Assembly (NCBI RefSeq): GCF_023824315.1
Contig: NZ_CP098732.1
Location: 2,790,001 to 2,854,000 of the forward strand
Direction of reading: 5' to 3'
DNA from: Acinetobacter tibetensis
GTDB taxonomy: Bacteria > Pseudomonadota > Gammaproteobacteria > Pseudomonadales > Moraxellaceae
Length of the DNA: 64,000 nucleotides
The notes below the pieces were generated by a model. It saw nothing but the letters and a program-made list of their open reading frames with translations. It was not told where the DNA came from and did not search any database. Below, one piece after another: positions 54,129 to 57,182 of this stretch; positions within the stretch are counted from its first letter, which is position 1, and each line of letters begins with the position of its first letter. Both the position numbers and the translations under genes were made by a program.

Positions 54129-55034
54129 ATGAAATATCAGATTCTAGATCAATTACAACAACACAAAGCCCAACTCCTCGACTCAGTCGAATTGGGTTCA
54201 GGCATGCAGCTCGCCATGTGGCAAAATAACCAAGACTGCGTACAGGTCTGTAGCAATCACCACACTTTAAGCATGTACATTCAGGGTGGATATCACAGTT
54301 ATCAAAAAACCGCGCGCGGTTGGCAGAATGGTGGTGGTCCCGACCACATGTGTCTGTTGCCACAGGATTTTGATTCAACATGGGATTTACGTGATCCACT
54401 GACCTTCGTGCATTTATACTACACTGAACAACACTTAAAACGCGTAGCAGAACAAGTCTGGGACCGTGAACCAAGCCAAATACAGTTAAATCCGCAAAGT
54501 TTTGTCGCCGATCCACAAATTGCGATGATTTATCGACACTTTTTACTCAATAGTGCCTGGCAAAACCGTGAAAACCATTTGCAGATGAGTACTGCCACCA
54601 CGCTGCTGCTTAACCATTTAATTAAAAATTATAGTCATACCGAGTGGCAAGCTCCTGAAGTCAAAGGGGGCCTATCACCTTATATCCTAAAACAACTTTT
54701 ACAATGGATTGATCGGCATCTACATTTAAGTTTAACCCTGTCCGATTTAGCACAACAAACTCAGCTCAGTGAGTATCACTTTGCTCATATGTTTAAACAG
54801 TCTATGCATATGCCACCGCATCAATATGTGATGCTACGACGACTGGAATTGGCACATCAGACATTACAAACCACCACTGCCACAATCACAGAAGTTTCAA
54901 CGCAATATGGATTTAGTTCCAGCAGCCATTTTAGTCATCGCTTTAAAAAACACTTTGGCTATTCGCCTTCGCAAATGCTGAAAATGGGAAAAATCCAGCC
55001 TTTAAAAGAGACATTTGAAGATTTGAAGATTTGA
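54129..55034 (+). CDS. AraC-family transcriptional regulator with repeat-derived C-terminus
   Basis: 301 residues. The N-terminal ~185 are a cupin-like sensor region without a recognised ligand motif. The C-terminal ~95 are a double helix-turn-helix AraC domain: LTLSDLAQQTQLSEYHFAHMFKQSMHMPPHQYVMLRRLELA, then ITEVSTQYGFSSSSHFSHRFKKHFGYSPSQ. The last seven residues (FEDLKI and neighbours) come from the first copies of an octamer array, and the stop codon also lies in the array. It may control the divergent EamA exporter at 53043. The gene appears complete otherwise; the domain ends at about residue 283. Confidence 0.88.
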   Translation: MKYQILDQLQQHKAQLLDSVELGSGMQLAMWQNNQDCVQVCSNHHTLSMYIQGGYHSYQKTARGWQNGGGPDHMCLLPQDFDSTWDLRDPLTFVHLYYTEQHLKRVAEQVWDREPSQIQLNPQSFVADPQIAMIYRHFLLNSAWQNRENHLQMSTATTLLLNHLIKNYSHTEWQAPEVKGGLSPYILKQLLQWIDRHLHLSLTLSDLAQQTQLSEYHFAHMFKQSMHMPPHQYVMLRRLELAHQTLQTTTATITEVSTQYGFSSSSHFSHRFKKHFGYSPSQMLKMGKIQPLKETFEDLKI

Positions 55035-55212
55035 AGATTTGAAGATTTGAAGATTTGAAGATTTGAAGATTTGAAGATTTGAAGATTTGAAGATTTGAAG
55101 ATTTGAAGATTTGAAGATTTGAAGATTTGAAGATTTGAAGATTTGAAGATTTGAAGATTTGAAGATTTGAAGATTTGAAGATTTGAAGATTTGAAGATTT
55201 GAAGATTTGAAG
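55013..55212. repeat. Perfect tandem octamer array, 25 copies of ATTTGAAG
   Basis: From 55013 to 55212 the unit ATTTGAAG repeats exactly 25 times (200 bases) without a single mismatch. It begins inside the last codons of the AraC gene. On the + strand every frame meets a TGA within 24 bases. On the - strand all three frames stay open. It ends just before the terminator of a small minus-strand gene. Perfect copies suggest recent slippage or expansion and a copy number that may differ between strains or cells. Confidence 0.97.
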
Positions 55213-55224
55213 AAAGTTTAAAAC

Positions 55225-55260
55225 AAAAAAAGAAGATAAAGCTTAAGCCTGATCTTCTTT
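55225..55260 (-). terminator. Bidirectional terminator between the octamer array and the micropeptide gene
   Basis: AAGAAGAT and ATCTTCTT arms enclose an AGGCTTAAGCTT-type inner pairing. On the minus strand it runs into seven T (A-run 55225-55231). The plus strand has a shorter T-run (CTTTTTG). The micropeptide stop codon lies in the loop. It can also end the AraC transcript. Confidence 0.7.
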
Positions 55261-55329
55261 TTGACCGTAAAACCATGTTGCCGCAATAAAACAACTAAAA
55301 CCAACAACCATTAGAATTGCAGATGCCAT
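55243..55329 (-). CDS. Predicted 28-residue membrane micropeptide with Pho-box promoter
   Basis: ATG 55329 opens 28 codons ending TAA at 55243. It begins MASAILMVVGFSCFIAATW and ends FYGQKEDQA: a single helix of about 18 hydrophobic residues with a charged tail, the layout of small membrane peptides such as those attached to transport or respiratory complexes. Upstream on the same strand are an AGAG ribosome-like site and a complete Pho-type promoter (55370-55391 plus CATAAT). It is followed by a terminator. Promoter, ORF and terminator together make it a credible gene. I do not recognise it, and it is too short for homology by eye. Confidence 0.6.
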   Translation of the reverse strand: MASAILMVVGFSCFIAATWFYGQKEDQA

Positions 55330-55369
55330 AACAAAATGCTCTATTTGGAATGCGCTTATTATGTGAAAG

Positions 55370-55391
55370 TTTTATGACAAATTTATGACAA
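55370..55391 (-). promoter_or_regulatory. Pho box (PhoB-type) with matched -10
   Basis: On the minus strand two direct 11-base repeats, TTGTCATAAAT then TTGTCATAAAA, fit the PhoB consensus (CTGTCATAWAW twice). The second TTGTCA is followed after 11 bases by CATAAT, the same spacing as TTGTCA to TATAGT in the E. coli phoA promoter as I recall it. ATG 55329 lies 40 bases downstream of the box. Confidence 0.75.
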
Positions 55392-55655
55392 TTCCATCAC
55401 TTTGAATTTACTCAAATCACCAACAAAGTAAAGTCAGTTAATTCAACACATTAAATTTAGGTCCTCCATTCACCCTTGTACTTTTTCAATCAATGTTGTC
55501 AGTTGTTCAAATATCGCAACTAAAATATGGTGTTCTTGATAACCGATTTTATCCATTAAACTTTAGCCCAAAAATGCAGCAAAATACCCACAACCGTGAC
55601 GTTATACCTTATAATTTAGCCCGCTAGCTAACAGCCCGCTCAAGAGATATTGGAT

Positions 55656-57182
55656 ATGACAACTATTATCAAGCAAGATGACTTGATCACTTCGGTCAAG
55701 GACGCGCTTCAATTCATTTCGTACTATCACCCGCAAGACTTCATCCAAGCGATGAGCCGTGCGTATGACCGTGAAGAAAACAAAGCTGCGAAAGACGCCA
55801 TTGCACAAATCTTGATTAACTCTCGTATGTGTGCAGAAGGTCATCGTCCAATCTGCCAAGATACTGGTATTGTTAACGTCTTTGTTGAAGTGGGCATGGA
55901 TGTTAAATTCGATTTAACCATGAGCCTCGATGATGCAATCAATGAAGGTGTACGCCAAGGTTACTTAGAAAACTCGAATGTACTTCGTGCATCAGTTTTG
56001 GCTGATCCAGCATTTGGTCGTAAAAACACCAAAGACAACACCCCTGCTGTGATTTACCACAAACTTGTTCCAGGCAACAAAGTGGACATTACGGTTGCAG
56101 CCAAAGGTGGCGGTTCTGAAAACAAATCTAAGCTTGCAATGCTTAATCCATCTGACTCGATTGTAGATTGGGTACTCAAGACTGTTCCAACCATGGGTGC
56201 AGGCTGGTGTCCTCCTGGTATGTTGGGTATTGGTATTGGCGGTACTGCTGAAAAAGCCATGATGCTTGCAAAAGAATCACTCATGGAAGAAATCAACATG
56301 GACGAATTACTTCGTCGTGGGCCTGAAAATAAAATCGAAGAACTTCGTATGGAAATCTTCGAAAAAGTTAATGCTCTCGGTATTGGTGCGCAAGGTCTTG
56401 GCGGTTTAACTACCGTTCTTGATATTAAAATCAAAGACTACCCTTGCCACGCTGCGGGTAAACCAGTCGGCATGATTCCAAACTGTGCAGCAACTCGTCA
56501 CGCACACTTCCAATTAGATGGTTCAGGTGTTGCACACATTCAAGCACCGAAACTTGAAGACTACCCTTCTGTTACTTGGGATTCTTCAAGTTCTAAACGT
56601 GTTGACCTTGATACTATTACTCAAGAAGAAATGAACGCATGGCAACCAGGCGACACATTATTGCTTAACGGTACAATCTATACAGGTCGTGACGCTGCGC
56701 ACAAACGTATGGTTGACATGTTGAACAATGGTGAAGAGCTTCCAGTTGACCTTAAAGGTAAATTTATTTACTACGTTGGCCCTGTCGATCCTGTAGGTGA
56801 TGAAGTGGTTGGCCCTGCTGGTCCTACAACAGCAACTCGTATGGACAAGTTCACTCGCCAAGTTTTAGAAGCGACTGGTATGTTCGGTATGATTGGTAAA
56901 GCTGACCGTGGTCCAGCGGCAGTTGAAGCCATCAAAGATAACAAAGCAACTTACCTTATGGCTGTAGGTGGTGCGGCTTACCTTGTTTCTAAAGCAATTC
57001 GTGAAGCTGAAGTGGTTGCCTTTGCTGACTTAGGTATGGAAGCAATCTACAAATTTGTTGTGAAAGATATGCCTGTATCGGTTGCGGTTGATGTGAATGG
57101 TACATCTGTACATGCAACAGCACCGAAAATCTGGCAAGCGAAAATTGGTAAAATTCCTGTAGTAGATGCTGCAGCAGGCTAA
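55656..57182 (+). CDS. Class I fumarate hydratase ([4Fe-4S] type)
   Basis: Reversible hydration of fumarate to malate in the TCA cycle. The 508-residue single chain holds the alpha region (about 1-280) and beta region (about 300-508) of class I fumarase fused, as in FumA/FumB. Candidate cluster cysteines are in RPICQDTGIVNVFVEVG, GWCPPGMLGIGIGGT and MIPNCAATRHAHF. Later come TGRDAAHKRM and KADRGPAAVEAI, and the end SVHATAPKIWQAKIGKIPV. ATG 55656 follows AAGAGATATT; TTG 55650 is an alternative. Iron-sulphur dependence means sensitivity to oxidants and iron shortage. Confidence 0.93.
   Translation: MTTIIKQDDLITSVKDALQFISYYHPQDFIQAMSRAYDREENKAAKDAIAQILINSRMCAEGHRPICQDTGIVNVFVEVGMDVKFDLTMSLDDAINEGVRQGYLENSNVLRASVLADPAFGRKNTKDNTPAVIYHKLVPGNKVDITVAAKGGGSENKSKLAMLNPSDSIVDWVLKTVPTMGAGWCPPGMLGIGIGGTAEKAMMLAKESLMEEINMDELLRRGPENKIEELRMEIFEKVNALGIGAQGLGGLTTVLDIKIKDYPCHAAGKPVGMIPNCAATRHAHFQLDGSGVAHIQAPKLEDYPSVTWDSSSSKRVDLDTITQEEMNAWQPGDTLLLNGTIYTGRDAAHKRMVDMLNNGEELPVDLKGKFIYYVGPVDPVGDEVVGPAGPTTATRMDKFTRQVLEATGMFGMIGKADRGPAAVEAIKDNKATYLMAVGGAAYLVSKAIREAEVVAFADLGMEAIYKFVVKDMPVSVAVDVNGTSVHATAPKIWQAKIGKIPVVDAAAG

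What the first reader, a model, noticed from the sequence alone, without database searches (positions are those of the whole stretch)
55243..55391. Undescribed 28-residue membrane micropeptide behind a phosphate-type promoter
A full gene cassette is visible: Pho box with two 11-base repeats, a -10 at phoA-like spacing, a 28-codon ORF with one hydrophobic helix and a charged tail, and a terminator. It lies in what would otherwise be called empty sequence. It suggests a small membrane regulator made under phosphate limitation.
Basis: partly seen in the sequence, partly recalled or inferred. Interest (0 to 1): 0.72.

Follow-up and report, generated by a model that had tools for sequence, protein, structure and literature searches.

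The report
Phosphate-controlled membrane micropeptide gene in Acinetobacter
A tiny gene that makes a 28-residue membrane peptide, with what looks like its own phosphate-starvation switch and stop signal, is conserved in many Acinetobacter species but matches no protein family that was searched; what the peptide does is still unknown.

Summary
The finding holds, on the minus strand: Pho box 55390-55372, -10 box 55363-55358, ORF 55329-55243 (MASAILMVVGFSCFIAATWFYGQKEDQA), and a terminator whose stem (55262-55252 with 55237-55227) is built partly from the last sense codons.

Strong homologues occur in 71 of 175 Acinetobacter genomes (own included) and two shorter relatives; nothing convincing appeared in 293 genomes drawn from the order. 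The frame is under protein selection: pN/pS 0.25, against 0.93 and 2.17 in shifted frames. Box and -10 accompany the ORF in 58 of 59 distinct cassettes, also away from fumA. In 40 sampled genomes without the gene the fumA upstream region has neither; in two decayed copies both are damaged. The other two perfect boxes in this genome precede a PHO4 phosphate permease and a T_hemolysin/AMP-binding operon; phoB has a one-mismatch box.

Most likely: a PhoB-induced single-helix peptide that binds an inner-membrane partner. PhoR fits the distribution best, but no partner is proven. A new family of a known kind (small membrane regulators).

The parts
55372..55390 (-). Pho box: two 11-base direct repeats, TGTCATAAATT TGTCATAA
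   Evidence: Sequence; 0 mismatches, one of 3 perfect sites in the genome; conserved with the ORF in 58 of 59 distinct cassettes
55358..55363 (-). -10 hexamer CATAAT, 9 bases after the 18-base Pho box; no -35 box
   Evidence: Last five bases (ATAAT) identical in 58 of 58 aligned cassettes, first base C in 54 of 58; no sigma-70 -35/-10 pair found
55243..55329 (-). 28-codon ORF with stop: MASAILMVVGFSCFIAATWFYGQKEDQA, one hydrophobic stretch
   Evidence: pN/pS 0.247 (bootstrap 0.18-0.31) in frame, 0.93 and 2.17 in shifted frames, third-position excess reached in 0 of 5000 shuffles; homologues
55225..55262 (-). Intrinsic terminator: 11-pair stem (55262-55252 with 55237-55227), stop codon in the loop, T run 55231-55225; 5' arm is codons Gln23 (part) to Asp26
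   Evidence: Fold -14.5 kcal/mol, z -3.7; 52 of 59 cassettes keep the core of both arms and a T run of 5 or more; codons 24-26 show no synonymous change in 53 copies. Not reported by the simple scan
55013..55213 (.). Array of 25 copies of an 8-base unit between the terminator and the end of the AraC-type gene; associated with the cassette, role unknown
   Evidence: four copies of this unit found in 12 of 59 genomes, each time beside the cassette or its decayed copy, apart from one contig-start hit in G057
55656..57182 (+). Divergent neighbour: class I-type fumarate hydratase (context only)
   Evidence: NCBIfam NF004885, TIGR00722 and TIGR00723 over cut-off; near the cassette in 49 of 50 named loci

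Best explanation
A monocistronic gene of the Pho regulon. When phosphate runs low, PhoB~P binds the two repeats, replaces the missing -35 contact and starts a transcript of about 130 nt that ends right behind the stop codon. It is translated into a 24-29-residue single-pass inner-membrane peptide. The peptide has a strongly conserved stretch, I-A-A-T-W-x-Y-G, at one end of the helix and a more variable hydrophobic rest, and acts by binding one specific membrane protein and tuning it during phosphate limitation. Among partners that could be compared, the sensor kinase PhoR fits best (feedback on PhoBR, in the manner of MgrB on PhoQ), because PhoR is present in every genome tested, whereas PstC and the PHO4 permease each fail to reach their family cut-off in a lineage that keeps the peptide or a diverged form of it. 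Shown here: gene, coding selection, box-ORF linkage, terminator fold. Inferred: PhoB binding, translation, membrane insertion, partner binding. PhoR as partner is only the leading guess, roughly 1 in 3.
For: Coding: pN/pS 0.247 in frame against 0.93 and 2.17 shifted, 29 independent pairs from 58 distinct sequences. Box and ORF stay together in 58 of 59 distinct cassettes, and in three genomic contexts: fumA (49 of 50 named loci), glnA (G076, G031), a LysR-type gene (G150). Neither is found upstream of fumA in 40 of 40 sampled genomes without the gene; both are damaged in G080 and G036. Of 5 genome sites with 0-1 mismatch, one precedes PHO4, one phoB-phoR, one the T_hemolysin/AMP-binding operon, one this gene. 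F11, I15, T18, W19, Y21, G22 are the same in 58 of 58 (see the caveat on gathering in the Against line). PhoR over cut-off in 10 of 10 genomes: G000, G031, G076 with the peptide, G143, G150, G171 with a diverged one, G036, G080 with a decayed one, G004, G010 without. PstC not over cut-off in G076. PHO4 not over cut-off in G143, G150, G171. Small proteins that bind PhoR are on record: DUF1127 (PMC12501420, abstract and outline seen).
Against: No expression, translation or localisation data. PhoR is also present in the tested genomes without the peptide, so its presence predicts nothing. The G143/G150/G171 copies are weak matches (E about 2.5e-4) and change I15, A16 and T18, which weakens the argument against PHO4; the PstC argument rests on one genome. 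The sequences were gathered with a pattern that asks for T-W-x-Y-G; all 105 loci put in gave a match, but the diverged copies and two masked ones were not put in, so the invariance is partly by choice. Helical periodicity is only suggestive (288, 691 and 210 of 5000 shuffles as strong for three ranges). The box pattern is not enriched genome-wide at up to 2 mismatches, and one 1-mismatch site has no gene behind it (L176). No clear Pho box was found around own pstC (L281; pstS upstream not fully covered).
Confidence: 0.72

Rival explanations
1. The peptide regulates a transporter rather than PhoR: for example it holds the Pit-type permease (PHO4) or PstCA in an altered state under phosphate limitation, as MgtS does with PitA in E. 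coli.
For: A PHO4 permease gene in the same genome carries one of the three perfect Pho boxes. MgtS (31 aa) is thought to inhibit PitA (PMC10710835, passages read). MgtS and the window peptide share F-S-x-F-[LI]-A-A.
Against: MgtS does not score clearly above chance: 60 of 3000 segment-wise and 9 of 3000 full shuffles of MgtS reach its 7.5 bits, and it was picked by eye; the best of 51 transmembrane windows from this window's proteins has 7.0. The permease is found in 169 of 175 genomes, with or without the peptide, and not over cut-off in G143, G150, G171, which have a diverged peptide. PstC is not over cut-off in G076.
Confidence: 0.25
2. It is a Pho-controlled small RNA and the ORF is incidental, or it is a dual-function RNA.
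For: Compact transcript; codons 24-26 show no synonymous variation, as expected if they form the terminator stem.
Against: Outside the stem, third positions vary and the protein does so less: pN/pS 0.247, third-position excess in 0 of 5000 shuffles. G076 keeps FIAATWFYG without the KED tail or that terminator. No Rfam family in the window at the gathering score.
Confidence: 0.05
3. The Pho box serves the divergent fumarate hydratase gene, and the ORF is hitch-hiking.
For: The box lies about 265 bases upstream of fumA, and fumA is near the cassette in 49 of 50 named loci.
Against: Orientation and spacing to -10 and ATG point at the ORF in 58 of 59 distinct cassettes. In 40 of 40 sampled genomes with fumA but no ORF there is no such box. 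Away from fumA the box goes with the ORF.
Confidence: 0.02
4. The peptide is a membrane-active toxin or a structural subunit of an enzyme complex induced by phosphate limitation, not a regulator.
For: Size and a single helix fit type I toxins and small oxidase subunits (recalled); weak Pfam hits to MWFE (3 of 24 members, best 0.041) and Ibs toxin (1 of 24, 0.088).
Against: Those hits are at chance level. No partner operon is seen; an antisense antitoxin RNA was not looked for beyond Rfam. Purifying selection on a near-exact IAATWxYG motif suits a protein contact better than pore formation (inference). A subunit role in an untested complex is not excluded.
Confidence: 0.2

Closest known systems
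MgtS of E. coli (31 aa; PhoQP control recalled; binds MgtA and PitA per PMC10710835)
   Same: Size, single helix, standing under a nutrient-stress two-component system; F-S-x-F-[LI]-A-A stretch in common with the window peptide
   Different: Profile score not clearly above shuffles; PhoB-type box here; different hosts; partner unknown
MgrB of enterobacteria (feedback on PhoQ; seen only as a title in the reference list of PMC6194859, otherwise recalled)
   Same: Possible logic: regulator-induced membrane peptide acting on its own sensor kinase
   Different: MgrB's sequence was not compared here; PhoBR instead of PhoPQ; no interaction shown
Small DUF1127 proteins that bind PhoR (PMC12501420, abstract and outline)
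   Same: Small proteins tied to phosphate control through PhoR
   Different: No DUF1127 hit among Pfam matches; a single membrane helix instead; this gene itself has a Pho box
E. coli-type Pho box promoters (consensus CTGTCATNNNNCTGTCAT and the olsB box of Acinetobacter, PMC11828411, passages)
   Same: TGTCAT half-sites with an 11-base period; no -35 box
   Different: Ordinary member of the promoter class

Membership tests
Pho regulon (PhoB-controlled gene) | Two 11-base repeats with TGTCAT half-sites at -10-compatible spacing | tested here: met
   perfect site; box-to--10 layout kept within 5 of 29 mismatches in 58 of 59 distinct cassettes
Pho regulon (PhoB-controlled gene) | Like sites precede known phosphate genes in the same genome | tested here: met
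   PHO4 permease (0 mismatches), phoB-phoR (1), polyphosphate kinase (2); but at up to 2 mismatches the pattern is not enriched over its reverse (18 against 15), and no clear box was found around own pstC
Pho regulon (PhoB-controlled gene) | PhoB binding and induction by phosphate limitation | not testable with these tools
   Needs footprinting, transcript measurement and a phoB mutant
MgtS family | Sequence homology to MgtS beyond helix composition | tested here: inconclusive
   7.5 bits, reached by 60 of 3000 segment-wise and 9 of 3000 full shuffles; no NCBIfam hit to an MgtS model
MgtS family | Binding to MgtA or PitA | not testable with these tools
   No complex prediction or binding assay available
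DUF1127 small proteins | DUF1127 domain | tested here: not met
   not among the Pfam hits of the window peptide or the 24 members
Any described family (Pfam, NCBIfam, PHROGs, PDB sequences) | Profile match | tested here: not met
   no hit for the window peptide; in 1-3 of 24 relatives only hits of E 0.03 or worse
Single-pass membrane micropeptide | Insertion in the inner membrane | not testable with these tools
   Hydrophobic stretch of about 18 residues read from the sequence; the peptide is under the 30-residue limit for folding here

The most novel reading that the evidence does not exclude
A family of PhoB-induced single-helix micropeptides that bind PhoR (or another fixed membrane partner) and close a feedback loop on the phosphate response. 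So far seen only in Acinetobacter, it was lost or moved repeatedly and keeps a private Pho box at each site. Its last codons double as the transcription terminator, and in many species it sits beside an 8-base repeat array; the window's unit was found, in 59 genomes searched, only beside this cassette or at one contig start.
Probability: 0.3. Interest if true: 0.68.

Novelty: new member of a known kind. Interest (0 to 1): 0.52.

Why it matters
Small membrane proteins under two-component systems tune sensors and transporters, but I know of none (by recall; listings showed none) with its own Pho box in Acinetobacter. A conserved peptide with its own Pho promoter gives an immediately testable handle on post-translational control of the phosphate response. 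It also shows that box, ORF and terminator can be followed as one unit across species to find genes of under 30 codons.

Tried and rejected
Homology to MgtS: the resemblance was spotted by eye, then calibrated and set aside as evidence.

Pit permease as obligate partner: found in 169 of 175 genomes, so uninformative, and not over cut-off in three genomes with a diverged peptide. The weak PHO4 matches there (19-21 bits, stops inside) may belong to a second PHO4-like gene, which the own genome also has; I do not read them as remains of the permease.

Wider distribution: 293 genomes drawn from the order (own genome and one more of the genus among them) gave 24 with a hit at E up to 0.1, own included; the best other is 0.0017 and covers positions 2-22. 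These weak hits were not inspected for a Pho box. Plasmids and phages gave no match to the window peptide; 35 viral stretches matched a pattern, none confirmed.

Rows dropped or left out: four weak hits in the genus (G047, G077, G097, G122; E 0.013-0.034) have no Pho box (11-12 mismatches of 29) and are not counted. G045 shows box and first codons, then masked letters, and is not counted as intact. L151 (second copy at a contig start in A. bouvetii SFB21, no start codon found) was dropped. The diverged copies (L160-L162) and masked ones (L152, L154) were not put into. L105 has lost most of its first half-site.

Absent-genome sample: 40 genomes, chosen by me from those without the gene whose fumA place one search listed, were looked at; not all without the gene.

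The promoter consensus came from these sequences, so the mismatch counts are partly circular; the absent loci and the whole-genome pattern search are the independent checks.

Structure prediction was not tried (under 30 residues).

Paper searches: (listings only); passages seen; abstract and outline. No paper on this gene was seen in those listings; papers outside that open library were not searched.

Full report
What is there. On the minus strand, between an AraC-type regulator gene and the fumarate hydratase gene, lies a complete small transcription unit. Its Pho box, TGTCATAAATT TGTCATAA, spans 55390-55372. The -10 hexamer CATAAT is at 55363-55358; no -35/-10 pair of the sigma-70 kind was found in 55000-55700. 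The ORF runs from 55329 to 55246 with the stop at 55245-55243 and reads MASAILMVVGFSCFIAATWFYGQKEDQA. The RNA of the last codons and the bases behind them folds to an 11-pair stem with a small inner stem, the stop codon in the loop, and seven T after it (-14.5 kcal/mol, z -3.7); the simple terminator scan does not report it.

Is it a gene? A profile of 24 relatives finds strong matches (E below 1e-13) in 71 of 175 Acinetobacter genomes, own included; two further ones (G076, G031) at 4e-9 and 6e-8; three weak ones (G143, G150, G171) at about 2.5e-4; and four (0.013-0.034) that I discount. Among 293 genomes drawn from the order 24 had a hit at E up to 0.1, one of them the own genome; the best other is 0.0017 and partial, and none was inspected further. 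A scan of named genomes gave 50 loci, all titled Acinetobacter: tandoii, bouvetii, lwoffii, pseudolwoffii, schindleri, indicus, variabilis and others. Over 58 distinct sequences, nearest-neighbour pairs give pS 0.262 and pN 0.065, ratio 0.247 (bootstrap 0.18-0.31); the two shifted frames give 0.93 and 2.17; third codon positions carry more variation (0 of 5000 shuffles reach the excess). So the frame is most likely translated and under selection.

Conserved residues. F11, I15, T18, W19, Y21 and G22 are the same in 58 of 58; residues 9, 13 and 20 vary among mostly hydrophobic ones. The gathering pattern itself asked for T-W-x-Y-G. All 105 loci put in gave a match, but the three diverged copies were not put in: they keep F11, W19, Y21 and G22 and change I15, A16 and T18. 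Helical periodicity peaks near 95-100 degrees but is only suggestive (288, 691 and 210 of 5000 shuffles as strong for three ranges).

Is the Pho box part of it? Over 59 distinct cassettes, 45 match the 29-position box-to--10 consensus with at most one mismatch and 58 with at most five; the exception is a second copy without promoter at a contig start in A. bouvetii SFB21. The distance from -10 to ATG is 26-36 bases, 28 in 27 of the cassettes. In 40 sampled genomes that have fumA but not the gene, the fumA upstream region holds no such site (best 9 mismatches on either strand) and no ORF match (best 2.8 bits). In G080 and G036 the copy has decayed, and both box (5 and 7 mismatches) and frame are damaged.

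The cassette is not tied to one place. 49 of 50 named loci have fumA beside it, but G076 carries a 24-residue version (ending GKS, without the KED tail) between glnA and purU, G031 one like it near glnA, and G150 a diverged version between a LysR-type gene and a lactonase-like gene. G143, G150 and G171 each have three TGTCAT half-sites with one mismatch in 18, 36 bases before the ATG; a site that good was reached in 0 of 300 shuffles of each locus. A FastTree tree of 87 fumA genes (50 from genomes with the gene) needs 12 changes of presence, at least 7 forced by well-supported branches: repeated loss, transfer or both.

Other boxes in the own genome. The exact pattern TGTCATANNNNTGTCATAA occurs three times: before a PHO4-family phosphate permease, before an operon that begins with a T_hemolysin-domain and an AMP-binding gene, and here. 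With one mismatch come phoB-phoR and one site without a gene behind it; with two, a polyphosphate kinase gene and others. With up to two mismatches the count (18) is hardly higher than for the reversed pattern (15), so weaker sites should not be read as regulon members. Around own pstC no site with under 4 mismatches was found.

Terminator and tail. In 52 of 59 cassettes the core of both arms and a T run of at least five are kept. In 53 copies with the full tail, codon 24 is AAA or CAA (one TTA), codon 25 GAA in 53 of 53, codon 26 GAT in 50 of 53 (the rest Glu codons), while the third positions of A16, A17, T18 and G22 vary. In one copy (L022) Asp26 GAT has become GAA and the opposite arm changes from ATC to TTC, which keeps the stem. 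The KED tail is therefore partly conserved for RNA reasons, and the G076 and G031 versions do without it. The functional heart of the peptide is more likely the IAATWxYG stretch (inference).

How it most likely works. Inference: PhoB~P activates the promoter under phosphate limitation; the peptide inserts in the inner membrane and binds a fixed partner. The presence pattern speaks on three candidates. PhoR is over cut-off in 10 of 10 genomes tested, with, without and with decayed or diverged peptide. PstC is over cut-off in 11 of 12, not in G076, which has the peptide with a good box. PHO4 is over cut-off in 7 of 10; G143, G150 and G171 show only sub-threshold matches with stops inside, which may be a second PHO4-like gene that the own genome also has, and these three hold just the diverged peptide. 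A single shared partner would therefore more likely be PhoR, giving feedback on the sensor kinase. PhoR is equally present where the peptide is absent, so this is elimination, not proof; lipid-synthesis or respiratory partners were not tested.

Comparison with the known. No Pfam, NCBIfam, PHROGs or PDB-sequence family matches beyond chance. MgtS of E. coli (sequence) shares F-S-x-F-[LI]-A-A with the window peptide, but its profile score is reached by 60 of 3000 segment-wise and 9 of 3000 full shuffles, so I treat it as an analogue. MgtS acts on PitA and MgtA (PMC10710835, passages). DUF1127 proteins bind PhoR (PMC12501420, abstract and outline). A Pho box before olsB in several Acinetobacter strains is published (PMC11828411, passages). 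None of the listings seen describes this gene. Verdict: a real gene family, undescribed as far as these searches go; a new member of the known kind of stress-induced small membrane proteins.

Side finding. The array of 25 copies of an 8-base unit at 55013-55213 has counterparts in 27 of 47 named loci within 400 nt behind the peptide's stop (two more loci were too short to judge, L151 was not included), with none in random windows of the same loci. Of 59 genomes searched with four copies of this unit, 12 have it; in all 12 it lies beside this cassette (in G036 beside the decayed one), and one extra hit in G057 is at the very start of a contig. Some species have other units at the same place.

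Noticed in passing
window 55013-55213: Perfect array of 25 copies of an 8-base unit directly behind the micropeptide terminator. 27 of 47 named loci have an array there, some with another unit; four copies of this unit were found in 12 of 59 genomes, only beside this cassette or at one contig start.
   Followed up: partly
window 54129-55034: The AraC-type regulator ORF ends inside the 8-base array, so changes in copy number would alter its C-terminus.
   Followed up: no
L173 1501-2340 and onward (own genome C1:1410609): A perfect Pho box precedes an operon starting with a T_hemolysin-domain gene and an AMP-binding gene, with a TauD-family gene behind; it may belong to phosphate-free lipid or metabolite synthesis.
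   Followed up: partly
L187/L188 (own genome C1:3168857-3168897): Two weak Pho-like sites in tandem (2 mismatches each) upstream of a second gene with a sub-threshold PHO4 match.
   Followed up: no
G143, G150, G171 (L300-L302): No PHO4 match over cut-off and no match to the own permease at E 1e-30; only weak matches with stops inside, of unclear identity. These genomes also carry the diverged micropeptide.
   Followed up: partly
L251, L252: In G076 and G031 the 24-residue version of the cassette sits near glnA instead of fumA; in G031 two like pieces flank a 100-N gap, perhaps one gene at a scaffold join.
   Followed up: partly
L151 / L167: A. bouvetii SFB21 has a second copy of the micropeptide region near a contig start, without a start codon or Pho box in the usual place.
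   Followed up: no
L185 1726-2784 (own genome near C1:2095180-2096235): Regularly recurring repeats that translate as FLSCLHGSE look like a CRISPR array (type I-F repeat by recall; not tested).
   Followed up: no
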